A DNA stretch of 64,000 nucleotides from Paramacrobiotus metropolitanus (Eukaryota; Tardigrada; Eutardigrada; Parachela; Macrobiotidae): contig NW_026570277.1 of the NCBI RefSeq assembly GCF_019649055.1, positions 1 through 64,000 of the forward strand, written 5' to 3'. Shown piece by piece: positions 9,703-64,000 of the stretch. The notes under the pieces were generated by a model. The model worked only from the letters and a program-made list of their open reading frames with translations. It was not told the origin of the DNA and did no database searches. The position numbers and the translations under genes were made by a program. Within the stretch, counting starts at the first letter, position 1; every line of letters starts with the position of its first letter.

Positions 9703-10850
9703 CTAAATAATTTTTTTAACGATTTTAACAGAAGGTAGATCCTGTAGATTCACCGTCTTCAGAGCTTCGGTGAAGGTATTCAACGTGACGTAAGCAGCAG
9801 ATGGCAGCGGAAGTTCATTCCAGACTGATACAAGGCTGTTGAGATGCGATTCGTGGGTGGTGATAACCGTTCGTCCACAGATGGTTGTCGGTGCCGGTTT
9901 AATAGGACACGGGTGTTTCATAAGACGATCTGATGTCCTGGTGTTACCTGCAACAGACTCAAGCACAGCAGCCGAGAATCGAAGTGGCAAAACAACCATT
10001 TCACCCATCGGAACCACCCGAAATACTAATTTATATATGAACAACAAGGCTTTTTTCATACGACGGGTACGAAGATCATCCCACTTAAGTTCTTTCAGGC
10101 GTTCACTGTAATTCAAGAGATTGTTGCCGAGTCGTAGAGTTTTGGTGAACCTCCTTTGGCAACGTTCCATTTCATTTGTCGACTTTTTAGTGAAGGACGT
10201 ATAACAGAACAACAGTAATCGATTACGGAAAGGACAAGTGACTCGAAAAGTCGTATTCGAGCGCCGTAATCGGTGTATCGGAAAACGTGATTTATGCAGC
10301 TAATTCTTCGATCACACTTTTTGCTACATTTTCACTGTTGATCTTGAAGTCAAGTTTACGATCAACAAATATTCCTAGATGCTTAACGTGATCACACTGC
10401 GGGATGGGAGCACTGCTGATGCTGTACTGATATTCGCAAGTTGAAACTTTCTGTTTCGAGAACTGAACGTGGACAGACTTTGCAGCGTTAAGACTTAACT
10501 GTTTGCCGGTAAGCCATTCACTGAGATACGACAAGTCTTCCTGCAACAACTGAAAGTCAGACGGATGAGTAACAGGACGAAGCACTACGATGTCATCGGC
10601 GAAAACAAAAGCGACGCTTCTGTTTTTCAGTGCCCAGAGAAGATAGTTTAAAACACATATGAACAACAATGGTCCTAGCACAGAACCTTGAGGTACACCG
10701 CTGTTTACAGGTAGCGCGTCTGAAATTTCGGTGTTAGCGACAACACACTGCGTTCGATTTTTCAAGTAATTGGAAATTAAATGCACAACCTGCCTGGGAA
10801 GATTCACAGTCAGGCAATGCCATGCTTGACTGACGTGTATTGTATATATA
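9703..10850 (-). mobile_element. 5'-truncated non-LTR retrotransposon (LINE), defective
   Basis: The frame at 10292-10807 is the palm of a reverse transcriptase: GVPQGSVLGPLLF is motif B, VFADDIVVL is the catalytic motif C, and KQLSLNAAKS and HLGIFVD follow as in the thumb side of APE-type LINEs. A stop then interrupts, the link to the next part needs another frame (LFESLVLSVIDYC near 10230), and the frame at 9703-10212 carries the usual C-terminal tail (RRFTKTL, LFIYK, VWNELP). Motif A and the endonuclease are missing, so it is a dead-on-arrival 5' truncation with at least one frameshift. Jockey- or CR1-like is likely from the motif style, not proven. Confidence 0.85.
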
Positions 10851-11417
10851 TATTATATACTGCGTTGTAATTCACTGGACTATCGACCACAGACGCCCCG
10901 TGGATAGTACAGTGTAGACTGTTGTACATTCTGGCATAGGTAAACATAATATTATTGTTTTATTGTTCTACGAGTATTATTTATACGAGTACTAGCAGCG
11001 TCGTGACCGACCTTTACAACATAAAGGATGAAAATATTATCTTCGGTCTGTAGAAGCTTGACAGAACGAGTGCGCCATTCCGAGGCCTTCCGATTCCACC
11101 AAAATAACAATATTTGCCTGTAAAAAAAATAATAATATTCACTAAGAAGACTTCATACGCGCCTTTGTAGCTTAGATTTGGATGATTTTAAATTTTGACA
11201 TAGCGGAAACCTTGTTGGTTGATGTCGTGGCACACGTGGCAACTGCTAAACTTAGAAAAAAATTCAAAAAACTGTTAAGATTTGTTTTGCATGCTCCATC
11301 GACAATATAATATACCTTTTGTCAACTAAAAATGTTGCAACATCCTCATGCAAGTCACGGGTGTTGATGGTTCACTAAAGGTTTGAAAACTAGAGCAATG
11401 GACGGGTACTGTCAAAG
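10851..11417. other. Intergenic, no supported gene
   Basis: Contains a short TA-rich run (tatatatatattatata) near 10840-10860, at the 5' truncation point of the LINE. Nothing else with structure was seen. Confidence 0.4.
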
Positions 11418-25599: not shown

Positions 25600-27048
25600 T
25601 AGGACGCCTAACTTCCGTTTGAGGAAGGTACAGCCGTCGTTAGGAGGCCAGCTTGCCGTCGGAGGAGGGCGCCGCCGTTGCTAGGGGGTCTGCCTCCCGT
25701 CCGAGGAAAGTGCAACCGCCACTAGAGGTCTGCTTGCCGTCGGATGTAGGCACGCCGAAGGTGGCGGCCTTGTGTGCCGTCCGAGGAAGGTCCAACCGCC
25801 GCTGGGGGTCTGCTTCGCGTCGGATGTAGGCGCACCGAAGGGGGCGGCCTTGTGTGCCGTCCGAGGAAAGTGCAACCGCCGCTGGGGGTCTGTTTGCCGT
25901 CGGAGGTAGGCGCAGCCGAAGTTAATGGCCTTGTGTGCCGTCCGAGGAAGGTGCAACCGCCGCTGAGGGTCTGCTTGCCGTAGGAGGTAGGTGCAGCCGA
26001 AGTTGGTGGCCTTGTGTGCCGTCCGAGGAAGGTGCAACCGCCGCTGGGGGTCTGTTTGCCGTCGGAGGTAGGCGCAGCCGAAGTTGGTGGCCTTGTGTGC
26101 CGTCCGAGGAAGGTGCAACCGCCGCTGGGGGTCTGTTTGCCGTCGGAGGTAGGCGCAGCCGAAGTTGGTGGCCTTGTGTGCCGTCCGAGGAAGGTGCAAC
26201 CGCCGCCGGTGGCCTGCTTGCCGTCGGAGGAGGGCGCCGCCGTGGTTGGGGGCCTGTGCCGTCCGAGGAAGGTGCAGTTTTCGCAGGTGGCCTGCTTGCC
26301 GTCGGAGGAGGGCGCCGCCGTGGTTGGGGGCCTGTGCCGTCCGAGGAAGGTGCAGCCGTCGCCTGTTGCCTGCTTGCCGTCGGAGGAGGGCGCCGCCGTG
26401 ATTGGGGGCCTGTGCCGTCCGAGGAAGGTGCAGCCGTCGCCTGTGGCCTGCTTGCCGTCGGAGGAGTGCGCCGCCGTGGTTGGGGGCCTGTGTCGTCCGA
26501 GGAAGGTGCAGTTTTCGCAGGTGGCCTGCTTGCCGTCGGAGGAGGGCGCCGCCGTGGTTGGGGGCCTGTGCCGTCCGAGGAAGGTGCAGACGTCGCCGGT
26601 GGCCTGCTTGCCGTCGGAGGAGGGCGCCGCCGTGGTTGAGGGCCTGTGCCGTCCGAGGAAGGTGCAGCCGTCGCCAGTGGCCTGCTTGCCGTCGGAGGAG
26701 GGCGCCGCCGTGGTTGGGGGCCTGTGCCGTCCGAGGAAGGTGCAGCCGCCGCCGGTGGCCTGCTTGCCGTCGGAGGAGGGCGCCGCCGTGGTCGGGGGCC
26801 TGTGCCGTCCGAGGAAGGTGCAGCCGTCGCCGGTGGCCTGCTTGCCGTCGGAGGAGGGCGCCGCCGTGGTTGGGGCCTGTGCCGTCCGAGGAAGGTGCAG
26901 CCGTCGCCGGTGGCCTGCTTGCCGTCGGAGGAGGGCGCCGCCGTGGTTGGGGGCCTGTGCCGTCCGAGGAAGGTGCATCCGTCGCCGGTGGCCTGCTTGC
27001 CGTCGGAGGAGGGCGCCGCCGTGGTTAGGGAGCCTGTGCCGTCCATAG
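25600..27048. repeat. Minisatellite: 80/81-bp then 78-bp units, about 17 clear copies
   Basis: The anchor ccgaggaa recurs at 25701, 25781, 25861, 25942, 26023, 26104, 26185, then every 78 bases from 26263 to 26809, followed by 26886 (a 77-base unit) and 26964. The last anchor near 27043 is degenerate. The left part has 80/81-bp units (gccgaag...ggccttgtgtgccgt) and the right part 78-bp units (gagggcgccgccgtggttggg). Decayed copies extend left to about 25300. The array is very GC-rich. Since 81 and 78 are multiples of three, open frames persist through it in several frames on both strands. Confidence 0.95.
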
Positions 27049-27189: not shown

Positions 27190-28220
27190 TGATGGCTCTC
27201 TTTAGGGTCGCTTAATGAGAGTGGCGTTCAAGAACTTCCACGAGCACGAGCTGTCTCCTTAGCTCTGTCGGATAAGGCGCGGATTCAGATTACGCAGATG
27301 ATAACAGAATCATTCTAGCTAGCGCTGAATGAGCCATCGCACAAATGGCAGCAGGTAGAGACTAGTCAGTTGCGCAGTGATCAGCTAGATAGCCGCGAGC
27401 CCGCGACCGCAGATGAACAGCAAAGAAGGCTGGCGTGCGGAACACCTCGAAGTCCAAAATCCAAGGTGTGTTGATCAAGGAAGATCTCGCTTCCAAGGGA
27501 AAAACAGAAGAAAAGAACAGAGATCACTCGCGCGCACACGAACTCGAAGGAGCAGACTCAGAAACAAACAGCAATGCAGAAATGCAGAATCAGTGCGAGC
27601 GCACGAATAGTGCCAAGCGCAAACAGCATGCCCGTGCAAGACGGCGGCCGCTTTGATCTAAGCGCCACGGCGACGCGCACCGCCACCAACAGACTCACGT
27701 AACTTGCTACACATGGGGAGAGGAGAAAGCGGGAGCGCATGTCCTCCAGCTAACATTAACATCAATTAACTCGTTAATTGTCATTTAACATTATGATCAT
27801 ATCTTATTGTTTGATACTGTATGATCATATGGTATCTGTAGCAGCAGCGCATCCAATACGCATACCTATATCGTCAACGTTGGGTTAAAACAGAGAAAGC
27901 GCGTGTACATATGTGTCATTCGAAACGAAAAATCTCCAAGTCTGTTGGAAATTTTTTAATCCAACCTAAATAATTTTACAGTACTTAGAGATTTTTGTTG
28001 TCTTACGACACTCGTACTATTAAGGTGGCGTTCGGGTGGTATCAGGCTGTCTGAATCGGTAATTGTTTAATTATTAAAACTCCACTATTTTTGGCAAAAC
28101 CAACAAGAGATTACATAATAAAAGGCAAAAATGAATTTTTGAGATCCAGAAAAATTGCAGTTATTCTCACAAGCATTTTGCCGGTTGAAAATGATGAAAT
28201 TATCTTATCGTTTTTGTGCG
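27190..28220. other. Intergenic, no supported gene
   Basis: The left half is Arg/Lys/Glu-codon rich on the plus strand without an exon structure. The right half is AT-rich and probably includes the 3' flank of the kinase-Kelch gene that ends at 28225. Confidence 0.4.
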
Positions 28221-28224
28221 TTAA

Positions 28225-30628
28225 TTATCTCGTCAACCGGAAGCACGCACTATCTATCAGTTTCTTGTTCAGATAACATCGCTTGTCCAGATTCTCGAGC
28301 GACGCTTCTTCCCAAATATTCGTTTCCGGGTTATAAACCTCCATGGTTTGTGCCAGATCACCCTCCTCACCAGATGGATCGCTTTGAGTACAACCACCGA
28401 AAACGTACAGGCGCCCATCCGAAACAAAAGCTCCGTGCTTCTGTCTTGGTCGCCGCAGGTTGGCGATCGGTTCCAGTTCCAGGCTGGCACTGTCAATTCG
28501 TACACAGGTATCCAGAATTTTTCCCGCCACATGCATTCCGCCCGTAATGTACACGTGATTCTCCATAACAGCGCAAGCATAATCCAACCGCTGGTGCTCA
28601 GCGGGCATTTCGCGTACGAACTCCCATTCGCCAGTAGAGGCGTTGATTATTATGCATAATGCCGTGTTCAGGATGAAGATGCTTTGTCCGTCGTTAACCA
28701 CGGCCATAGTCGGAGCATTCCTGCAGAAGACTATCATCATTTCCCTTGCAAAGTTCAGTTTTGGTGGCCTGTAAATTACAGCATTGGATCACGAAACGGT
28801 ACTCGATTCAGAACAGTAATACACCTCAGGACCAAAAAAGTACTGTAGAACGGCCAAAAATAGTGTTATTGCTTTAGTCGTTGATTTGTATATTAATAAT
28901 CTAACTCACAGTTCACAGATGTCACTCTCGTTGGCGCCTTCCTGTGTGATTAAAACAGTAAAAGACTGCTCCAAGACGATGTTATCCCCGTCAACGGCCG
29001 CTACATTCAAGAGTCTGTGCTGTTCATTCAAATTCGGGGTTTCGAAGGAATAAATCCTGTTCCCAATTGCCATCGGTGTTCGGTACCACGCTTTGACTGC
29101 GAAGTTAGCGTTAAGAATGGACCATTTCCCCGTCAGGATATCTATCGCCATGATGTACACAGATTCTTTAGTAAATTTTCCGCACACTTTCACTTGAAAG
29201 AATAAACGGCTTCCCATTACGACGTACGAAGAAAGAACATGGCAATCCGAATGCGGGTGTCCCGGAAGTTGAACTTCACGAAGCTTTTTGGCAACTGGGT
29301 CGTATAACTGTAATACAGTGAATGTCAGGCGTTCCGAACCTGGATAGTTAACCCCGGTTCCGTACAGCTTATGGATAAATAAAAGCTTTTCATGCTTATT
29401 TAACCAGAGATTGTTTATTCTGGAGAGATTATTCCGGCAAATGCAGTCTTGATCATCTTCCGTCCATGGCGTGAACGTATAATTTGGACACAATTCCCAT
29501 GCGATTTTTATTAAAGCACTTTTAAGGTATGCTGCCGTTAAGCGACGGTTGCTGTCAACAAACAACTCGTGCACTAGAAGTTCACGGAAATTCGACGGTA
29601 CCCGCTCGTTGACATATGGTGCTGCTCCATTCATCACGTTCATCGCAAACACGTTGTCATTGGTACGTTGCTGAATATGACAGTAATGTGCAACCGAAGA
29701 ACCTTCCGCTGTTGGAACAACCATATGCAGTACTTGCTTATCAGCACCGTAGCTACAGTTCAACAGCTCGTGAAGGATGCATCCGAAACTCCAGATATCC
29801 GTCGCGCGACCCGGCGAAGCGGTCGGCACATCGCCAAATTTCCTCAGCATTTCCGGTGACATGTAGCGAATACTGCCGCGGAGTGTCGGGATATCGTAGG
29901 AGCTGGTGACGGTGTGGTGCATCTGGGTGAAATCGTCCAGATCGCCAATTAATACCCGGTCATGGTTTGCATGGCAGTGGCGCAGGATGTTCGCCGGTTT
30001 CAAATCACCGTGGATTATCTTGTGCTCGTGGAGGAATTCCAATCCGCTACATATTTGCAAAGCGTAGCAGAGCAATTTCGTTGGACGGAGAAATTCCGTT
30101 CCCTGGTGCGCTGTGCGTACTTTACTGAGGAGATTCGCCAAATCGCCGCCTGCGAGGAGACGTTAAAGAAAATAGCACTTTAAAACGTAGGGCAGGCAAA
30201 CAATGCCAAAATGAAAAATGGGCAAATCGGCTAAGCAGTGTGCGAGTTAAAAATCGGCACTAGTAAACATTTCCGTCTTATATTGTATGCATACCGTTGC
30301 AGTACTCCATTAAGAACTCCACAGACGCTCCCCCTGTCGATGTATTGATCGATATTTTGTGGTAGTTGAGCAAATGGCTGTGTCGAATAGTAAGCAGTTT
30401 AGTCCACCTATCGCGCAGTCTTCTCCAGCTGTCCGCATTACTGTAGTGATCGGATTCCCGGTACAAATGCGTCACTTTCACCGCAACTGCAGTTGCTCCA
30501 ATATCACCACCAGATCCCGTAATATTCCCTCGGTAGACAATGCCAAACCTTCCTCTCGCAATGAACGCGGTGCTATCATACTGATACATGCAACTGCTTC
30601 CCAATGTATCGCTTTCAGGTGCTTCCAT
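28225..30628 (-). CDS. Protein kinase fused to Kelch region (copy A), 705 residues
   Basis: Three minus-strand exons, 30295-30628, 28910-30149 and 28225-28768, join in phase through 145- and 141-nt introns (AACG before GTATGC; ctcctcgcag; GAACT before GTGAGT; aatttacag). Residues 1-300 form a Ser/Thr-type kinase domain: glycine loop ARGRFGIVY, ATP-site lysine AVKVTH, catalytic loop HGDLKPAN, GDLDD in the DFG place, MSPEML for APE, DIWSFGC in helix F. HRD is HGD and DFG is DLD, but the catalytic Asp, Asn and metal-binding Asp remain, so activity is possible. From about residue 400, Kelch-type blades appear (VYITGGMHVAGKILDTCVRI, LYVFGGC...MEVYNPETNIWEE). Probably a cytosolic kinase whose propeller selects partners. 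A tandem paralogue lies 0.9 kb upstream. Confidence 0.85.
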
Positions 30629-30639
30629 AACGTATAGTA

Positions 30640-31550
30640 TGATTAAACAGGAGCGTGTTTAGCTATTGCGAAATGCCATACGCAGGTAAACGACACTTTG
30701 GAGCCGTGTACTTATAATACATTAGATAATGTTTATGATTAATTTTATCAATCTCAAGTTGAGATTCTCAACTGCGCAAGGTACGCGTACCTGTGAAAAC
30801 ATACTCTCAAGTCTAGTCAGCAGATAACCAACTGTGGTACCCTTACAGCCACTGCAGTGCACGTAAGCTCGTAAACTGTTTAATACTGGTTCGTTTGTAC
30901 TGATCAGCTGCTGTTTGTATGTACCCCGTGTTTCACGTAAAAATACTAGTACATGCACACATGTGACAACTTGCCTTGATACTGAACGGTTCGTGTCGTC
31001 GAGGATACAGTAAGTGCGCAAGCGCTTTGAAATTATTAATAGCCTGACAGTGCATGCAGAAATTTACACGCCGGTCAACGTGCAATATTTCACTAGTCGT
31101 GCATTATTAAATTTGACTGTTTTTGTCGTCGGCAAACCAAGAGTTGCCGAATACATATTTAACACAACGAATTAGCGTTAAAAACTGGAGAAGATAGAGC
31201 CTAAATTTAGAACAGCAAACAGCAGATTAAGAAGAGATTTTTACTATTCGACCGGCTAAAAAATTATCAAGGGTATTTTAAAACCTCACTATTTTTACGT
31301 AATAAATTAAATATTACTACTCTGTAAGCGTTGCTGAATTCTGTGAATAAGCGTACATAGCTACTGTTTTTCCAAACTGAAATTAGAAGTACTTCGAAAA
31401 GACAAAGTGTTGTCAAACAATTAAAACGTCTTCTGCCTTGTTCCTAAGCTCATTAATGCTTTATTATGTTTCATTAAATTATGTCGTACAGGATCTTACA
31501 AACTTGAAAGAAGAGCACCAATCAAAAACAGAACCATTTTTAATTTTAGA
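30640..31550. other. Spacer between the two kinase-Kelch genes
   Basis: No coding exon seen. It must contain the promoter of copy A and the transcript end of copy B. No clear TATA-initiator pair was recognised. Confidence 0.4.
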
Positions 31551-31551
31551 G

Positions 31552-34262
31552 TTATCTAATAAACTGAAAACATGCAGTTTCTATCAAATCCTTGTCCAGA
31601 AAACATTGCGTGTCCAGATTCTCGAAAGGGAACTCTGACCATATATTCGATACCGGGTCGTAGACTTCCATTGTTTGTGCCAACTGACTTGACTGTCCAG
31701 AAGCACTCGGCACGCAACCACCAAAAACATAGACTCGGTTGTCAAACGCAAACGCACCGTGCTTATGCCGACGGTTCCGTAGGGGGCACATCGTCTGTAA
31801 TTCGAGGTTTTCAGCATCCAAATTAATGCGTAAACATGTGTCCAGCGTTTCCCCCGACTCACTCGATCCACCAGTAATGTACACGTAGTCACCCAACACA
31901 GCTAAAGCAGAATCCACCCGTCGGTGCTCGGGCGGTATAAAGCGCATGTCTTTCCAGTAACCTTTGGTTGCATGAATTTTCAAAAATAGTGGCGTACTAG
32001 TACAAATTGTATCTTCTTCGTTAGCCACCACCATTATTGGGGAATTGCTACAGACTTCCTTTACGATTTGATGGCCATAAATAAGTTTGAGTTCCCTGCA
32101 ATATCAAACGAAAAATAGCTAAGTACTCATAATGGTGCTTTTGTGTGTAGATTATTCTGCAGTATTGTGCTCTTTAGTGTTTCTCAATGACAACAGCGAC
32201 ATTTCTAATCACACAATTTAAAGACCAACAACGTGTTGATAAAGCATTACTCTAGTGAAAATACGAGTACAGAGACTCAACCAGAGCCTTAATTATCATG
32301 AAACTCATCTGTAAGGACACCTATTCGGAAACAGGTTGTGCTACACAAATGGAAAGCAACGTTTTCGGTCGTGTTGTATCTGGTACGAGTACGGGTGGTG
32401 CAGTCACTGCCACTGCAATGCTCCCGTGCGTGACCGCATCGTCCGTATGTCACCGGTAAAACTAAAAGGAACTACATCGTAATATTAGCGGGCCGAAGGC
32501 GATTACTGTCAGTAAATCCGTGGCAGCGCAGCTAACGTAAGCCGAACGCCCGACGGAGCCCGGACGTACATTTACTGTACATACTACGGCACATAGCCAT
32601 TCTATGAACTGTGAAGATGAATAAAGACTGTTCAAAGACAATATTATCCCCGTCCACCGCTGCTACATTCACAAACCGGCGTTCTTCACTCGGATCCGGA
32701 GTTTCAAAATAATAAATCCTGTTCCCGATTACCACCGGTGTGCGGCACCACGCCCTGACTTCAAAGTTCGCATTCAGTGCACACCACGCTCCCTTCTCCA
32801 AGTCTACGGCCAGAATTCGCGTTACGTCCTTTCCAGATTTTTCCTTAACTACGACTTGAAATATTAAGCGAACCCCCATTACGACAAACGATGAAAGAAT
32901 ATAACTGTCTGAATGTGGATGAACAGGAAGTTGAATTTGACGCAATGTTTTGGCGAGGGGATTAAACTGTTGCACTGAAGTGGAGGTCACCCATTCCGAT
33001 TCCGGATAGTTTCCCCCGGATTGTTTTAATTTGTGTACAAACAAAATGTTATTTTTCAGATTCGAAGGGGGTGGGTTTCCATGAGATGAAGTATTCCGGC
33101 AAAAGCAGACTGAATTATCATCCAGTTCCCTCCACTGCGTAAAACTCGGATATAATTTCCAAGCGATTTTTAATAATGCATTTTTAACGTCTGACGCCGT
33201 AAAGCGACGATTGCTGTTTACAAATAGTTTCTTTTCCAAAAACTCCCGGAATATGGAAGGTACCAATTCGCTGATGAATGGAGCATAGCCGTTAAGCACG
33301 GTCATGACGAATACGTTATCGTTGATGTTTTTCAGCATATGAAAATAATGCGGAATCAGGGTGTTTTCGGGTGACAGGAGAGTCGCGTGCAGCACTCGCT
33401 TATCCACACCGTAACCGCAATTCAGCAGCTCGTGAAGGATGCACCCGAAACTCCAAATGTCCGTTACCCGACCCGGGGACGCGGTCGGCATACCGCCGAA
33501 TTTTTTCAACATTTCCGGTGACAAGTAGCGAATACTGCCGCGGAGCGTTGGAATATCGTAGGAGCTGGTGACAGAGTGGTGCATCTGGGTAAAGTCATCC
33601 AAATCGCCAATTAATATCCGATCATGACCGTCAGCAGTGCAGTGACGTAGGACGTTTGCCGGTTTTAAGTCGCCATGGATAATTTGGTGATTGTGCAAAA
33701 ACTCCAGTCCTTCGCTTATTTGCAGAGCATAGCAGAGGATTTTATTAGGCCTGAAAAATTCGATTCCTTCGTGCGAGTCACGAACGCTGTTCAGAAGACT
33801 CGCCAAGTCGCCGCCTGTAGTAAACGTTAGAACAAGTTGTTATAACACTGCTTAGGGTAATCGTATTTCGCAAATCGACTAACGCGAAATCAAGTGATGA
33901 AACTGCTCGATATGTTTACCGTTACAGTATTCCATTAAAAATTCCACGGACGCTCCGCCAGTTGATGTACTGATTGTCACTTTGTGGTACTTGATCAAAT
34001 GAATATTTCGAATACCAAGCAGTGTTGTCCATCTGTCGCGCAGCCTTCTCCAGCTGTCGACATCATCGTAATGCTCGGATTCTCTGTATAAATGGGTAAC
34101 TTTTACGGCTACCTTCGTTTCTCCAACATAATCACCACCCTTTGTAATAGTTCCTTCGTAAACAATACCGAACCGTCCTCTCGCAAGGAAAGCGTTGTTA
34201 TTATAATGATACTCGCAACTGCTTCCCAGTGCATCGTTTTTGCGAAAATTCAGCACCTCCAT
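31552..34262 (-). CDS. Protein kinase fused to Kelch region (copy B), about 702 residues
   Basis: Paralogue of copy A with the same three-exon plan: 33920-34262, about 32593-33814 and 31552-32095. Exon 3 has exactly the same length (544 nt) as in copy A. Kinase features: ARGRFGIVYEG, AVKVTHLYRE, HGDLKPANVLRH, GDLDDFTQMHH, LSPEML, DIWSFGCILHE. The Kelch side includes YVYITGGSSESGETLDTCLR and YVFGGC...MEVYDPVSNIW. The exon 2 donor is not conserved; a weak GTGCCG at 32592 keeps the phase, whereas stronger-looking GT sites nearby do not. So the 3' end of exon 2 is uncertain, and loss of normal splicing is possible. Tandem duplication with copy A is evident from protein and intron positions. Confidence 0.8.
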
Positions 34263-37307: not shown

Positions 37308-39065
37308 TCAGATAGACGACTGCAGTTCACGGTAAAGAAAAATGTCCGCTTCCTGTGTGGCCGGTCGCGGTAGAACCCATGTCGATACCGTCTCTGGGGA
37401 GCAGTGCAGAAAGTCATGCTTCATCAGATCCTTGGTTACCCAGCGGTCCTTTGCATTACGGCTGAGACACTTGCTGAGGAAGTCTTGTATCTCGGCCTGC
37501 AGCAGTGGAGAAACAGTCGGCACACCTCCATGCCCAACAAACATCATGACTGGCAAATCCTCTGTTAGCAGATCGCCGTCTTTCTGGTAGAATTCCGGCC
37601 AGCCCCCGTTAATTATCTCCAGCACGACACAACCTAAGCTCCAAATATCGCCTCGCATAACCAGCTCACTGGACTTGCCCAGGGTCTCACCGCGACGGGC
37701 GACTCACCGCGGATCCTCTCCGGCGGTACAAACACCAGTGTTCCCCGTTCACGCCTCTCTTCGCCGCGCCTATCCAGTGCATCGAAGATCCACCCCATGC
37801 CGGTGATTTTGATATGAGGAGCGCCCCAGGCGTCGACGCATATCATTATGTTAGCGCCCCGGAAGTCGCGATGAGCATAGCGTTGCGCGTGTAGATATTC
37901 CAGACCGGCAACTATTTGGCCAACTGTGTGCTGCAGCTGCAGAGCTGTAATAGTGTTTGTAGTCACGAAATCATGCAAATTTTCACCTGCAATGAAAAAA
38001 CAAATATACAATATATCTCAAACTAATTCCCGTAATCAGGCAAACTGCTTTGCAAAGGCATTCTTCATAGACGAGCTTAACTCGCTTGAGCGGGAGGGGC
38101 ATCGAGGAACCGAAGACCCAAAAGACGGTTAAAATAATCTGCTGTAAAAATTGCTTAAAACTATCAAAAGTTATGTAAGCTGAGTCAATTTGCGTCTAAA
38201 GCAAGGCGCCAACCTAAAACGTAACCGTTGCAATTTTTCTCGCCATGCCAATGACCCATTTCGCTGCAAAAACTGCTAAAAATCAAATAATTAAAAAAAA
38301 CAGCTGAAATAATTCAAATTTCTGCAGCGAAATTTAAAGGGCAAGACATGTAGAGTTGTAACATATGAGGAGTTACAGAAAAAGTAAACGAAACCAGTGC
38401 ACGTTGTTAACAACTTAACAGTAAAAAGTACTTCATAATATAAAAGTTAGTAGTTTGTGATCTGTTTTTTTTCATAATTTTCCGAGCGTTGCCCGCACTG
38501 CTCGAAGGTTAGGTTGCACAACTTCAAAGATTACGGGTTGGTTACGACACTAAACGACTAACCGTTGAGATTTCCATTTGTACCCATTTAAAAATTCCAC
38601 AATATTTCACGACATTAGTCAGTTACTGGGACTAACAGCCGAAACTGATATTTAACAGTCTCGAACAGACTTGGTCGGCAGACTTTGGTGAATTTTACTT
38701 TGGTTTATTGTTTAACAAATATTCAGATAATTTACATGTTACTGATGTTAGGTACCTTCGCAGAACTCGGTGATGACTTCATAAAATCGAGGCTCATTAT
38801 CAGCATATCTGTCGTGTTGAGATTCCTGATGATGGATCTGACGTAGCAGATTTCGATGATTCAAGTTGGCAATAAAATCAAAATTCGCTTTTAAACGCTG
38901 AATTTGGCAGTCACGCTCTCGTTTCAGGACATCTAGCGGAATATGCTTAACGGCAACGCACTCACTGCTTTCCGTTAAAACATCTTTATAAATTGATCCA
39001 TGGACACCGTCAAAAATTTGGGAGAGAAGCTGAATTTCTTTTCCAGGCTCCGTATAGGCCATCAT
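37308..39065 (-). pseudogene. Protein kinase-like gene with 17-bp duplication and altered DFG
   Basis: Exon 1 (38756-39065) holds a short N-lobe (FDGVHGSIYKD loop, AVKHIPL lysine). After a 769-nt intron, exon 2 (37308-37986) holds the C-lobe: HRDFRGAN catalytic loop, KITGMGW where DFG belongs, FVPPERI, then DIWSLGC in helix F. The DFG aspartate is missing and the catalytic-loop lysine is arginine, as in pseudokinases. Between PPERI and DIWSLGC the frame breaks: ctcaccgcgacgggcga is duplicated in tandem at 37686 and 37703. Without one 17-base copy the coding length (989-17=972) is a multiple of three and the two halves join naturally. Best read as a MAP3K-like pseudokinase gene disabled by a slippage duplication; an assembly error is the alternative. 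Confidence 0.7.
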
Positions 39066-51374: not shown

Positions 51375-52309
51375 TCAACAGATACTGTCACTGGCGGAGA
51401 CATTGGGCGGAAACTGATACCCGCCGTTCATCGGCAGAAACACCGCAATAAAAATATTCGACACCAGCACCACAAAAATACAAAACGACCCGCCTAAAAA
51501 GGCCAGTTTCCGCAGCGTCTTATACGTCTTGTCCTCTTCACTCTCCCACCAGTAAGCTAATAGAAAGCAACCGGTCGCCGCGATTTGCAGTACAATAGAA
51601 AGCATAAGGAGGGTAAAGGTGAAGCACCTGAACGGATGATACGGCACTTGCAGTAGTTCGCGCAGCTGCCCGGCATTGGACGTCAAGAGCGCCACGTCCA
51701 TTATACCGAGAATCACGCGTTTGGCGGCCAGTGTGGCGGAGCCCGGGTTCTTGGCCGGCTCTTCGTCATCCGGCTGCAAAGCGTCATTTTCATCCTGCAC
51801 AAAAGCACGAGAAAACTTGATTTTAATCGTTTTGTAATGAAGACCAGCTAGTTACTCATACTGAGATTCTGCTTGAAGCTTCGTACTGCTTCGCACTGAA
51901 CGCAAAATAAAATTACTAAAGACGCAGTAAATTTCTGAAGCTTTCAAAGTACAGTACAAACCGGAATGCCGTTCGACCGCAGATGCAGCTTTTTCACGGT
52001 TTTCATATGTGTGACTTCGGTGGCTTCCGGAATGGGTTCCAGTTCGTCGGATGCTGGAGGACCCTGTATGGCGTGCAGTGTGATTCGTTCCTGTTGAAAA
52101 ATGGCATAGGCTTTGTTGGGTTACAAGATTTACTAGGTTCTGCGCAATTAAATTTCCGTTGCGCATAATACGTGTACGTGAAAATGTCTTAAAACTTGGC
52201 ATATTCACACTTGTACAGAATCAGTTTTAAATAAGAGTACCTCGTTTTCAACATATCCTTTATTGGTATAGTTGGATTTGCCGCAAGTACGTGGATCAAG
52301 TACAGCCAT
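51375..52309 (-). CDS. Ninjurin family protein, 205 residues, three exons
   Basis: Exons 52241-52309, 51962-52090 and 51375-51794 join in phase 0 (GAG before GTACTC; ttttcaacag; CCG before GTTTGT; cttttgtgcag). The N-terminal 105 residues are hydrophilic and acidic (PPASDELEPIPEATE, DDEEPAKNPG). The ninjurin core follows: AAKRVILGIMDVALLTSNAG then QLRELL, the conserved amphipathic-helix region. Two membrane helices come next (TLLMLSIVLQIAATGCFLLA and FCIFVVLVSNIFIAVF). Ninjurins are plasma-membrane proteins; NINJ1 oligomerises to rupture membranes during lytic death, and other members act in adhesion. Which paralogue this is cannot be said. Confidence 0.9.
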
Positions 52310-54529: not shown

Positions 54530-56418
54530 TCACAACAGAAAGAGTTCAATAAACTTTTCAACTCCATCCATTGTTCCTAAAACCGAAGCCGCGTTTCCCC
54601 GCTGAATCTCCAAGGACAGTCGCTGCCGGAGAAACTCATGGGAGCGAGCCTCTCCGGTTTGATTATATAAACGTTTCCCGATTTCCTTGATAATGGCCGT
54701 AGCTGACGGTCCCCATGGGCCCATTGTTTCGAAAGCAATGGCTGCGAAAATGTATCGCCCAATCAGATACGAGTACAAATTAGTTTTCCTTTCTTCTGCT
54801 TGTAACGCGGCCGATCCGGCAGTCGAGGATGTGGACCTGATATGGGAAGCAGCGACCGTGTCGACACAAGTGACATCCCACGCCAGGCACATGCCCCTCT
54901 GCCAAGCAAACGTAGTACAGCCGTCTGGGCGTCGTTCGCTCGTGTGGGAGGTGCCGCGCGGTTCTAGTTTAGAGGGGAAGCCGGCTGAAACGAGGGCGCG
55001 GCATACAATGTTATTGAGCCCACCATGGCGTGGGAGCCTGCCGGCGGAGAATGTGCAGGATAGGCCGTGGTGTGCATATTTGTCAACTGGCTTGTGACAC
55101 TTCGTACAGTCATGTGGCTCACAGATAACTGCGCCAAGACGGAGCCCAACCGAAATCTTCAGCGTGTCATCGTCGAGTAAATTCCCAATGTGAGCGGAGG
55201 GCAGCGCGTTCAGCCAAATGCCTGCTTCCGGCCGTGACTGGGCAAGTAAGCGCGCTTTATTAATTTCATCGTCGCGGTACACATCCAGCAAGATAGACAA
55301 AGATACGTTGCATAGCGGTAAATCCCAGGTTTTCTGCAATTTCCGGAAGTTAGATTCGGGCAGTTCTACTTGACGAGCGTTTAGCTTCCACAGGTTTAGA
55401 GCCTCCGTGACGTTCACAGCCGGCCGTGCGGGTAGCAGACGGGATACCAAGTCAGATACGGAGTGAATCGAAGCCAAAAAGGCGGGAAGAGCTAATTCCT
55501 CCGAACGACGTATTCCGATACCTCCTCTGCTGACCGGGAGACTGGCTTGTCGCCAACTAGGGTAATCATCAAGATTGGTCCGGACGTTGCACAGCTGCTG
55601 GAAACAGGAGCGTAGCGTTTCGTCTACCTGGTACAGCTGCTGCGGATACCTCCACGCGTTGCAACATCTCAGCATGTAAATAATCTTAGGCGCGCCGAGG
55701 CAATGTCTCAGGAGGTACAACGCTTGGTGGCGCGGGAGAAGCTGCATTCGCTCACAAACCGAAAAAAGTGTCGTTGCTTTTTCAGCAAACATCGGGGCGA
55801 TTGCATCGTCCAATACTGGTGCTCCAAGAAGTGTCAGGTTAACGCTTGACATGACACGCAGCTGCGGATACCGTGTGAGAAAGCTGTCCACTGCTTCTTG
55901 CTGGATACTTTCAGGTCCGCCTGTAACATATAGTTCACATTTTCCGACGTTTATATCCAGGCCGATTGCTTTGGCGCCTTCGATAACCCGTGTAAAATTT
56001 TCCAATACGCTCAAGGGAGGCCCGCCCATAGTCCCATCGTCGAGATACCAAGCATTTAGCTCGGTAGTGAGGGTGGCAATTACAGCTTGCAGGGCTATAC
56101 AAAACAGTAATGGACCCAGTGGATCTCCCTGCTGTACTCCAGATTCTGACGACAGAATGTAATCGTCGAGAAACAGTGACGAATGGTGGCCGTAAGTTGA
56201 CAGGAAAAAGGGATAGTATTCTGGGAAATGCAGTTTCACAGCATTAAGAACCACTTCGCGAGAAACTGTGTTAAATGCATTCCTAAAATCCACTTTGATA
56301 ACGGCTTTTATGCTGTCCGGCGACGCGTCAAGAAAGCATCTGGTACCGTGGACTATGGCCTCAGCTCCACCGCGCACGTTGAAACCAAGCTGCACACTCC
56401 ACCGCGCACGTTGAAACC
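54530..56418 (-). mobile_element. 5'-truncated LINE with long intact RT plus endonuclease frame
   Basis: One open minus frame of about 620 codons. Reverse transcriptase: motif A KVDFRNAFNTV, motif B GVQQGDPLGPLLF, motif C AWYLDDGTMGG, then LDINVGKCELYV. A cysteine-histidine cluster follows (CTKCHKP...HHGLSC). The C-terminal part has RPDG...LAWDVTCVD...AEERK, resembling the PD-(D/E)XK restriction-like endonuclease of R2/R4/Hero-type elements. Order RT, CCHC, endonuclease matches R2-type LINEs. YLDD in place of the common ADD is typical of this branch. The 5' end is cut in the fingers domain (LGFNVRGGAEA). A piece of the same family lies at 12.7 kb. The intact frame suggests recent activity in the genome. 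Confidence 0.85.
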
Positions 56419-56419
56419 A
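56365..56419. repeat. Direct repeat, 23 bp at 32-bp spacing
   Basis: CTCCACCGCGCACGTTGAAA plus CCA occurs at 56365-56387 and 56397-56419. It duplicates the codons for FNVRGG at the truncated 5' end of the LINE, consistent with template slippage during target-primed integration. Confidence 0.8.
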
Positions 56420-56472
56420 TTTTGCTGCATGTTAGCGTATTCCGCCTGAATACGCTAACATGCAGCAAAATG
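56418..56472. repeat. Perfect 25-bp stem, 5-nt loop hairpin
   Basis: The arms cattttgctgcatgttagcg...(56418-56442) and 56448-56472 are exact reverse complements around cgcct. The hairpin abuts the truncated LINE 5' end and the direct repeat there. It is probably a junction product of integration or repair, such as snap-back synthesis. Confidence 0.9.
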
Positions 56473-61609: not shown

Positions 61610-63698
61610 CTAATTTGAGTGGAAATCCACCTTAAAATGAGACTGTAGCAGTTGAACGGTAACTGGTTGCAAAACAAAACAAGATGTAGAAAGCGAAGCA
61701 CTTCTGCATTCTAACGAGCATGGGTATGCTGATACAGTACTCGGCCGCAAAGCACTACTTTGTACACTGTAGTTTGGATTGCATCGGCGATTCGGCAGTG
61801 TGGTACTATGAAAGTATAATTGCTGACCTGAGCACGTTTTGCATTCCTCGAAATGCGACCACTTCTCAATATCTTTCCAGCAAGCGTTCATTGCAAAATG
61901 GCAGGCCGGTAAGGCTAGCAGCGAAAGGAAATCAGCGGCTGCCAGGATGTGAAACAGCAGTGAACCATGTTTTTCCGCCTGCACCAGCACTTCATCGGCA
62001 TCGGCCACCATGGAATTCAATTCGGAACTCCAGTCAAAACTAAACGCTACCATGTACACCACGAACGAGCACAACTGCAGCAGGGTGGCCATCCACATAC
62101 CCACCCGCGTCATGGTGCTCGCAATGGGCACCACGAGAAAATGCCCCACCACGTACAGCCATTCCGCGACAAACGCCAGCAAATTCTTGCCACATCCTTT
62201 CGCACGATCCGCCGGGGTCTCCGCTTTGCGACCGTACTCTTTCTTAAATAGCACCACCATGAATACGGCAATAATCACCATCTGGACAATGGTAACCAGC
62301 ACCAGACAAGCATAGTTGTACAGAAAAAGCGACGCCACATGACAGTAGCGACACATAATGTACAGTTGGTTGGCCAGCACGCCGGCGTAGTTGCACACGT
62401 TGGGCTTCAAGAGTTCTGTTAGTTCTTTCCATTCGATGTAGTCCTTCTCCGCCAGAAGCCGGTTGTTAGCGGAACACATACCCGGAAGATGGTTAACCGC
62501 CGGGAAATACTTGGCGATGGAGAAGAAGGCAAAGAAGATGATGATCCATTTCCAAAACGGCGGCGGGGTTCCCTGTGATGCCCAGGCTAATGCGGCCAAT
62601 AAAAGTTGGATGACTAACTGCGGAGCCGATTCGAATTTGATTTCATCCAGCTGGGCTTTCTGTAGGAAGAGCAGCTGGAAAGTCGGGTCGCGCTTGTACA
62701 TATACGTATCACGGAATTTTTGAGGATCCTCGCGGTGTAATTTAAAGTCCTTCATAAAGGCGAGTGACCTGCAGAAAGAAATGAAACCATGTTTCTGTGC
62801 TTATTGCGGTTGCTGTACCGAAGAGGGTCTATAAGATCACTTAATTTCGCATTTCCTCGTGGCAGCTGAAGAGCTTATCGAATTTCTTTTGGATTTCAAA
62901 AACTTTGACTTTCTCAATAACTTAAAACTGTCATTTTTATACAGCTATAAAAAAATTGCCTATTTCGCTTTTTCCTCTATTTTAGGACACTCTTTGTGTA
63001 CACGTTCCACACGGTTACGGGTCACGACCGAGTAACCGTCGACTGGGAACGCTTCTGCGTAAACTGTGGTCTGTGGTACCAAGTGCCTCATTTCGTTTTC
63101 ATTTTGTTAAATAAAGGTTTTGCGTTAATTCGAGGTTTTGCAAAACTATTATCATCAGTGCCTTAATAAACAAATAATAAATGAGTACCTCATACCTGCA
63201 GAGAATACTTAAAGGGTAAATTTCACAAAATCGCTTTACGTAGGCCTTCCTTAACCACTGCGGTAAATAATGCTCCAGACCATATTCCGGATCCAGATGC
63301 TCGCTTTCCGACGGTACCAGCGTGATGTCCGTATTAGTGATGAGGCGGTCCGTCACGCGTGACCAGTTTAGTTTGATATTCGGGGCGCCTGCCAGGGCAC
63401 TGCGGCAGAGGAAGCGGATAAACGACACCACCGACGGCAGGATCACAATCAGCGACATCACTATGCGCCACTCGAAGTGGATGCGGTACGGGTTTTTTAT
63501 CCACATGTGGTATACATCCCATACATCGAAGGCAAAATCCAGCACCATTAAACCCAGAGTGCAGATCAAAAAAGAGGTGACGAAGGTGAACAAGGAAAGG
63601 TTCAGCGGATCCGACTGCAGGCCAAGGCACCAATGTGCCATGGAAAAATTGGGAAGCAGCGGCCGGCAGATGCCCCGGATTACGTCCCCGTGAGCCAT
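61610..63698 (-). CDS. XK-related (CED-8/XKR-like) membrane protein, 553 residues
   Basis: Exon 1 (63196-63698) starts MAHGDVIRGICRPLLPNFSM and ends TGCAG before GTATGA. Exon 2 (61610-62768) begins after ttctttctgcag in phase; the intron is 427 nt. Multiple membrane helices are visible (LFTFVTSFLICTLGLMVLDF, WRIVMSLIVILPSVVSFIRF, LVLVTIVQMVIIAVFMVVLF, LLQLCSFVVYMVAFSF). The family signature FESAPQLVIQLLLAALAW lies near residue 205. XK-related proteins scramble plasma-membrane phospholipids, exposing phosphatidylserine in dying cells; CED-8 and Xkr8 are activated by caspases. No obvious caspase site is seen in the tail. The last 70 residues are low-similarity and may be lineage specific. Confidence 0.85.
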
Positions 63699-64000
63699 CA
63701 GAGAAAGAAAGGGAAAGAGACCACTTTAAAAAAAATGTAATAGACAATAAAACGTTATCTGTGTTTTTCATGTGCATTGTGCGCGCGCATGATGATGAGT
63801 ATCACATAAAAGCATTTTTTATGCGCTAACAAGAGAAGTTGACTATAACGTGCGATGCTGATAAAATAGCCCACCTTTTTCGGAAAAAAACTAGAGATTA
63901 CCAGTGGTATTCGTAGTTTAATATTGCGCACTCGGTGTATAAAAGACGTCAGTTGTATGATAAAAGTACTTGTCGGCTGTGTGACTAATATGTATAAACC

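What the first reader, a model, noticed from the sequence alone, without database searches (positions are those of the whole stretch)
28225..34262. Tandem pair of kinase-Kelch fusion genes
Two adjacent paralogues each join a complete protein kinase domain to a C-terminal Kelch-type propeller in one open frame, with matching introns. Kinases and Kelch propellers are usually separate proteins in animals; I know of no characterised animal kinase with this architecture. Both share HGD for HRD and DLD for DFG, so the catalytic chemistry may be altered in a family-specific way.
Basis: partly seen in the sequence, partly recalled or inferred. Interest (0 to 1): 0.7.

Follow-up and report, generated by a model that had tools for sequence, protein, structure and literature searches.

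The report
Tandem kinase–Kelch fusion genes
Two neighbouring sister genes in what looks like an animal genome each join a protein kinase to Kelch repeats, an unusual but not unprecedented pairing that may let one protein both grip and phosphorylate its targets.

Summary
On the minus strand lie two head-to-tail three-exon genes, A (34262-31552, 702 aa) and B (30628-28225, 705 aa), 59-60% identical. Each has a kinase match (Pfam E 2.6e-26, 1.6e-28) followed by Kelch repeats (5.3e-14, 4e-15). Both halves look constrained (NG86 dN/dS 0.155 and 0.26), so the fusion predates the duplication.

Corrections: detectable Kelch repeats lie only in exon 3. The roughly 190 residues before it show no profile match and only a weak blade-like signal, so a closed propeller is inferred. 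Intron 2 is clean in B but has a poor donor in A. HGD and DLD are confirmed, yet the catalytic Asp, Lys, Asn and metal-binding Asp remain; the alpha-C glutamate and first loop glycine are missing too.

Kelch-bearing kinases are known in Entamoeba and trypanosomatids. I saw none described for animals in limited open-access searches. Most likely a kinase whose Kelch part recruits substrates; a pseudokinase scaffold is the main rival. New variant of a known kind, moderate interest.

The parts
33920..34262 (-). Gene A exon 1: kinase N-lobe, starts ATG at 34262
   Evidence: Pfam Pkinase
33815..33919 (-). Gene A intron 1, 105 nt, GTAAAC...CTACAG, phase 1, within the hinge glycine codon
32593..33814 (-). 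Gene A exon 2: kinase C-lobe (HGD, DLD) plus about 190 residues with no Kelch profile match, inferred first half of the propeller
32096..32592 (-). Gene A intron 2, 497 nt, weak donor AT|GTGCCG (tentative), acceptor TTGCAG, phase 2
31552..32095 (-). Gene A exon 3: Kelch repeats, to stop codon
   Evidence: ATTAAA at 31544 and AATAAA at 31465 downstream
30295..30628 (-). Gene B exon 1: kinase N-lobe, ATG at 30628
   Evidence: Pfam Pkinase
30150..30294 (-). Gene B intron 1, 145 nt, GTATGC...CTCGCAG, phase 1, same position as in A
28910..30149 (-). Gene B exon 2: kinase C-lobe (HGD, DLD) plus inferred first propeller half
28769..28909 (-). Gene B intron 2, 141 nt, GTGAGT...TTTACAG, phase 2
   Evidence: no AATAAA or ATTAAA inside it
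28225..28768 (-). Gene B exon 3: Kelch repeats, to stop codon; AlphaFold model (pTM 0.69) matches Kelch propellers
   Evidence: ATTAAA at 28071 and 27960 downstream

Best explanation
The two genes encode kinases with a built-in docking module. Shown: a kinase domain with its catalytic loop (HGDLKPAN, with Asp160, Lys162, Asn165), beta-3 Lys51 and metal-binding Asp181, followed in the same apparent gene by a Kelch module, duplicated in tandem and kept under constraint. Inferred: the exons are spliced into one protein; exon 2's tail and exon 3 together close a Kelch propeller of about six blades; that propeller binds a short motif or the surface of a target (as KLHL3 binds WNK kinases), and the tethered kinase phosphorylates the bound target or its neighbours. 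Lacking the HRD arginine, the kinase may not need activation-loop phosphorylation (general knowledge, untested), and binding at the propeller may control activity. The faster divergence of the Kelch half suggests that A and B now hold different partners.
For: Kinase and Kelch profile matches in both proteins. Kelch matches of B to solved structures: designed SAKe propellers first, then NS1A-binding protein, KLHL3, KLHL2, KLHL17, KEAP1. Exon 3 model matches Kelch propellers of KLHL12, KLHL3 and KEAP1, Foldseek E 5.4e-10 to 6.4e-10, TM 0.63-0.64 over the query, below three designed propellers. A/B identity 233 of 331 aligned residues in the kinase and 182 of 365 in the rest, with NG86 dN/dS 0.155 and 0.26 (dS above 1 in both, so ratios are approximate). 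Exon 3 is 544 nt in both genes. Poly(A)-like signals follow exon 3 (A: ATTAAA and AATAAA; B: the ATTAAA variant only) and none lies inside intron 2 of either gene. Catalytic residues conserved in both.
Against: No transcript data. The exon 2 tail shows no Kelch match by Pfam, by profile-profile comparison with exon 3 or by PDB search. A blade profile gives it scores of only 1.2 and 1.6 bits, which 19 (B) and 15 (A) of 1000 shuffles reach; its best single stretch is reached by 79 and 17 of 1000. The exon 2 structure model failed (pLDDT 29.9). The alpha-C glutamate is absent in each alignment register seen, and the Gly of DFG is Asp, so activity may be low. Gene A has a poor intron 2 donor.
Confidence: 0.55

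Rival explanations
1. A pseudokinase scaffold: the kinase fold is kept for binding or allostery while phosphotransfer is lost or negligible, and the Kelch part supplies the second binding surface.
For: Alpha-C glutamate missing (the position falls on Arg70 or Trp75 in printed alignments and on Arg74 if counted without gaps), first loop glycine is Ala, DFG glycine is Asp, HRD arginine is Gly. The neighbouring kinase gene C (39065-37308) has GMG in place of DFG, so a degenerate kinase exists next door.
Against: Catalytic Asp160, Lys162, Asn165, metal Asp181, beta-3 Lys51, SPE and the alpha-F Asp229 are all conserved in both paralogues after long divergence, which is more than a scaffold should need. 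The kinase half is the more constrained half.
Confidence: 0.28
2. Not one protein: exons 1-2 encode a kinase with its own unrelated tail, and exon 3 is a separate Kelch gene or an occasional alternative exon.
For: Kelch signal is confined to exon 3, and the exon 2 tail is not demonstrably Kelch. Gene A's intron 2 donor is weak.
Against: The same order in two diverged paralogues; identical exon 3 length; in-phase clean GT-AG junction in B; no poly(A) signal in intron 2 of either gene; exon 3 alone holds only about three blades, too few for a propeller. The frame in front of exon 3 is closed within 20 bases (B) or 8 bases (A) of the acceptor with no ATG there; ATGs further inside exon 3 exist, but starting at them would cut into the first blade.
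Confidence: 0.08
3. Gene A is decaying: B makes the fusion, but A no longer splices exon 2 to exon 3 properly. (Compatible with the best explanation for B.)
For: A's intron 2 is 497 nt against 141 in B, with donor AT|GTGCCG; the end of exon 2 cannot be aligned well with B.
Against: Exons 1-3 of A are open throughout and exon 3 looks constrained between A and B (NG86 dN/dS 0.256), so any decay is recent.
Confidence: 0.2
4. A Kelch-type ubiquitin-ligase adaptor that acquired a kinase, acting through Cullin-3 like KLHL proteins.
For: Kelch repeats resemble KLHL proteins in PDB matches; KLHL3 and KEAP1 are reported to act on kinases in trans (titles and abstract starts).
Against: No BTB or BACK domain among the Pfam matches of either protein at E up to 1.
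Confidence: 0.03

Closest known systems
Entamoeba histolytica EhSrc (kinase with Kelch repeats, no SH2/SH3)
   Same: One polypeptide with a protein kinase domain and Kelch motifs; reported to co-localise and co-precipitate with actin (passages of PMC5648430).
   Different: Amoebozoan, called Src-like; the authors could not identify a propeller in their model; Kelch 1 includes residues 148-150, so it seems to lie towards the N-terminus, whereas here Kelch is C-terminal. No sequence comparison made here.
Trypanosoma brucei Tb927.5.3150 and a Kelch kinase in a trypanosomatid kinome table
   Same: Kinase plus Kelch or Kelch-like domains in one protein (passages of PMC8519429 and PMC1266030).
   Different: The T. 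brucei protein is a predicted membrane protein with a signal peptide; kinetoplastid; not compared by sequence here.
KLHL (BTB-BACK-Kelch) adaptors such as KLHL3, KLHL12, KEAP1
   Same: Kelch repeats of the same type; best natural structural matches of exon 3.
   Different: No BTB or BACK found here; a kinase occupies the N-terminal half.
NEK family kinases (NEK2, NEK7)
   Same: Best solved-structure matches of the B kinase domain (E 6.6e-15).
   Different: ULK, JAK and MAP3K5 score nearly as well, and ULK1 ranks above NEK2 with the A/B profile, so no family assignment is secure; HGD, DLD and the missing alpha-C Glu differ from NEK2.
PPKL Kelch phosphatases (plant BSU1 type by recall)
   Same: A phospho-signalling enzyme fused to Kelch domains (abstract starts listed).
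   Different: Phosphatase, not kinase; described there in Plasmodium and Toxoplasma and as plant-like.

Membership tests
Eukaryotic protein kinase superfamily | Profile match over the whole domain | tested here: met
   Pkinase E 2.6e-26 (A, profile 3-259 of 263) and 1.6e-28 (B, 6-256 of 263)
Eukaryotic protein kinase superfamily | Catalytic residues: beta-3 Lys, HxD Asp, Lys, Asn, DFG Asp | tested here: met
   K51, D160, K162, N165, D181 (B numbering) invariant in A and B, placed by alignment to NEK2 and NEK7
Eukaryotic protein kinase superfamily | Alpha-C Glu, complete GxGxxG, HRD Arg, DFG Gly | tested here: not met
   R70/R74/W75 at the alpha-C position, ARGRFG loop, HGD, DLD; from general knowledge these are not strictly required for membership of the superfamily
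NEK kinase family | Clearly best match to NEKs over other kinase families | tested here: inconclusive
   B kinase: NEK2 58 bits, ULK1 54, JAK1 50, MAP3K5 49; A/B profile: ULK1 50.2, NEK2 49.3
Kelch repeat proteins | Kelch motifs (GG doublet, spaced Tyr and Trp) | tested here: met
   Kelch_1 4.7e-16 (B) and 8.4e-15 (A) in exon 3 alone, two stretches each
Kelch repeat proteins | Closed beta-propeller of 5-7 blades | tested here: inconclusive
   Exon 3 gives about three blades (model pTM 0.69; fold matches); exon 2 tail unresolved
KLHL (BTB-BACK-Kelch) | N-terminal BTB and BACK domains | tested here: not met
   No such match among the Pfam families listed at E up to 1
Protist Kelch kinases (EhSrc, Tb927.5.3150) | Homology of both halves and same domain order | not tested
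   No sequence comparison made; papers read in passages only
Animal gene | Lies among animal-type genes | tested here: inconclusive
   Favours an animal: Ninjurin match 2.3e-15 and 7tm_1 7.6e-7 (29.3 bits, cut-off 30.5); acyl-CoA dehydrogenase closest to short/branched-chain enzyme 2jif, 200 bits against 121 for the next. That Ninjurin is an animal family and 2jif human is recalled; species not identified

The most novel reading that the evidence does not exclude
A lineage-specific animal family of Kelch-guided kinases with a non-canonical active site (HGD, DLD, no alpha-C glutamate), in which the propeller both selects substrates and switches the kinase on, and in which tandem copies diversify their targets while keeping the engine.
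Probability: 0.25. Interest if true: 0.65.

Novelty: new variant of a known kind. Interest (0 to 1): 0.42.

Why it matters
In animals, Kelch propellers are known to meet kinases as separate proteins (KLHL3 with WNKs, KEAP1 with IKK-beta; titles and abstract starts). A natural cis fusion would give a one-molecule test of how a propeller steers a kinase, and its retention in two diverged copies suggests that selection favours the pairing. Kinase and Kelch are both widespread modules, and Kelch-bearing kinases are known in protists, so this is a notable domain combination rather than a new kind of system.

Tried and rejected
Relatives elsewhere: four collection scans with the A/B alignments found no relative; viral contigs, 32 pattern stretches, 0 confirmed; genome contigs, 47 stretches, 0; viral contigs with exon 3, 57 stretches, 0; genome contigs with exon 2, 43 stretches, 0. 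These collections hold viruses, bacteria and archaea, so the absence says nothing about other animals. No own genome is held.

NCBIfam gave 13 families, generic bacterial kinases and mutarotase-type Kelch proteins, each far below its cut-off. Rfam (gathering thresholds) and tRNA scans of the window were empty. A bacterial-type promoter scan of the A-B gap is not meaningful for this organism and I drew nothing from it.

Exon 2 structure prediction failed (pLDDT 29.9) and was not used for any search. PDB search of the exon 2 tail gave only three rows, all of one sea-anemone toxin (best E 0.47), rejected as chance. A translation of gene C's second exon was in a wrong frame, and the BLAST made from it in that call is not used. 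The blade profile includes this protein's own exon 3 repeats among its six seeds; the stretches it finds in the exon 2 tail are short (7-14 residues).

Tardigrade-directed literature searches followed a hunch about the organism that I could not test. Papers opened that gave no Kelch kinase: PMC5531438 (passages; 0 Kelch mentions in the main text), PMC3188802 (Dictyostelium; 0 Kelch mentions) and PMC12889055 (passages; Kelch only as a downregulated gene and in a reference). Considered and set aside: KLHL-type adaptor (no BTB/BACK) and secure NEK membership (near-ties with other kinases). For gene A's intron 2, other donors (phase 0 or 1) with acceptors further inside exon 3 were considered by eye and set aside because they would drop conserved residues.
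Full report
What is there. Both genes are on the minus strand, A upstream of B, 923 bases apart. Reading the splice sites from the sequence gives A: 34262-33920, 33814-32593, 32095-31552 (702 aa), and B: 30628-30295, 30149-28910, 28768-28225 (705 aa), each ending in a single stop. The proteins are 59% identical over 706 alignment columns (416 of 706, one continuous alignment), or 415 of 696 aligned residues in a second alignment.

Kinase half. Pfam Pkinase covers almost the whole profile in both. In solved structures the best matches for B are NEK2 and NEK7, then ULK1, AMPK, JAK and MAP3K5 with nearly equal scores; with the A/B profile ULK1 ranks above NEK2. The kinase family therefore stays open. 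Present in both genes: beta-3 Lys51, the catalytic loop HGDLKPAN, the first Asp of DLD, SPE, and the DIWSFG motif. Altered in both: the glycine loop reads ARGRFG, HRD is HGD, DFG is DLD. The alpha-C glutamate is replaced: it falls on Arg70 or Trp75 in the printed alignments to NEK7 and NEK2, and on Arg74 if counted without gaps (my reading of the alignments). Asp66 and Asp73 lie close and might stand in. From general knowledge, lack of the HRD arginine usually means no need for activation-loop phosphorylation; this was not tested here.

Kelch half. Exon 3 alone gives Kelch_1 at 4.7e-16 (B) and 8.4e-15 (A). Its AlphaFold model from the two sequences is moderate (mean pLDDT 66.3, pTM 0.69; 49 of 180 residues below 50) and matches Kelch domains of KLHL12, KLHL3 and KEAP1 with Foldseek E near 6e-10 (the top three rows are designed propellers). 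Exon 3 has room for about three blades. The preceding 190 or so residues in exon 2 should hold the rest, and by eye they show spaced stretches such as VVMGSRLFF, AIGNRIYSFE and YDPVAKKLREV. The tests are weak or negative: no Kelch match in Pfam, no profile-profile match to exon 3, no PDB match beyond chance. Against a blade profile built from six repeats, four of them from exon 3 of A and B, the tails score 1.2 (B) and 1.6 (A) bits; 19 and 15 of 1000 shuffles reach this. The best single stretch is reached by 79 and 17 of 1000; the kinase halves score -0.5 and -0.6. A complete propeller is therefore inferred, not shown.

Is it one gene? Intron 1 sits at the same codon and phase in both genes, with GT-AG ends. 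Intron 2 is good in B. In A the intron is 497 nt and, among the GT sites I checked by eye in the exon 2 tail, only AT|GTGCCG keeps the frame with the conserved acceptor. Exon 3 is 544 nt in both. No AATAAA or ATTAAA lies inside intron 2 of either gene, and such signals follow exon 3 of both, in B only the ATTAAA variant. Constraint reaches exon 3: NG86 dN/dS 0.256, and 0.272 for the exon 2 tail. YN00 failed for exon 3 and for the whole Kelch half, gave 0.349 for the exon 2 tail and 0.161 for the kinase. NG86 synonymous divergence is 0.95 in the N-lobe and above 1 in every other part, so ratios are rough and the duplication is old. As both copies share the architecture, the fusion most simply predates the duplication.

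Context. The neighbourhood looks animal: Ninjurin at 51378-51851 and a 7tm_1 match at 941-1300, slightly below its cut-off, and an acyl-CoA dehydrogenase closest to the short/branched-chain enzyme 2jif. I could not name the species. A third kinase gene (C, 39065-37308) lies upstream on the same strand. It has an intron at the equivalent hinge position and phase, GMG in place of DFG, and an interrupted frame where CGCGGTGAG occurs at 37711 and again at 37694. Gene A finds C at E 5.5e-5 by tblastn within the window, and neither A nor B finds any further Kelch stretch there at E up to 1.

What is known. Kelch-bearing kinases have been reported in Entamoeba histolytica (passages of PMC2939887 and PMC5648430), T. 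brucei (passages of PMC8519429) and in a trypanosomatid kinome table (passage of PMC1266030). Ten searches of the open-access library listed no animal kinase with Kelch repeats in the titles and abstract starts that I saw; some searches showed only 15 of 37, 25 of 42 and 15 of 30 papers, and (exact phrases) found none. Most subscription papers and all databases of predicted animal proteins lie outside that search, so novelty in animals is unproven. For tardigrades, one paper reports 27 kinase clusters among those found only in two species (passage of PMC5531438), a reminder that lineage-specific kinases can be common; whether this window belongs there is unknown.

Most likely mechanism. A kinase tethered to its own substrate-recognition propeller. 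The catalytic apparatus is largely retained, the Kelch half diverges faster (182 of 365 against 233 of 331 identical), and separate Kelch proteins bind kinases (KLHL3 with WNKs through a short acidic motif, abstract starts). Steps shown: fusion in sequence, conservation, domain identity. Steps inferred: splicing and translation as one protein, closed propeller, catalytic activity, target binding. The main rival is a pseudokinase scaffold.

Noticed in passing
window 39065-37308, minus strand: Third kinase gene: HRD kept, GMG in place of DFG, alpha-C position Asn by eye; hinge intron at the same position and phase as A and B; frame interrupted where CGCGGTGAG recurs 17 bases apart (37711 and 37694). 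Pseudogene or sequence error.
   Followed up: partly
window 25621-27044: 78-base tandem array, 18 copies, open in several frames on both strands.
   Followed up: no
window 54533-56431 and 10295-10852, minus strand: Reverse transcriptase matches (RVT_1 2.6e-9 and 5.8e-15), probably retrotransposons.
   Followed up: no
window 32096-32592: Gene A intron 2 is 356 bases longer than B's and has no significant similarity elsewhere in the window (best other E 0.35); possibly an insertion that altered the splice donor.
   Followed up: partly
window 51378-51851, minus strand: Ninjurin-family protein (2.3e-15).
   Followed up: no
window 61613-62800 and 63102-63725, minus strand: ORFs that look hydrophobic and multi-helix by eye, without a secure Pfam match.
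   Followed up: no
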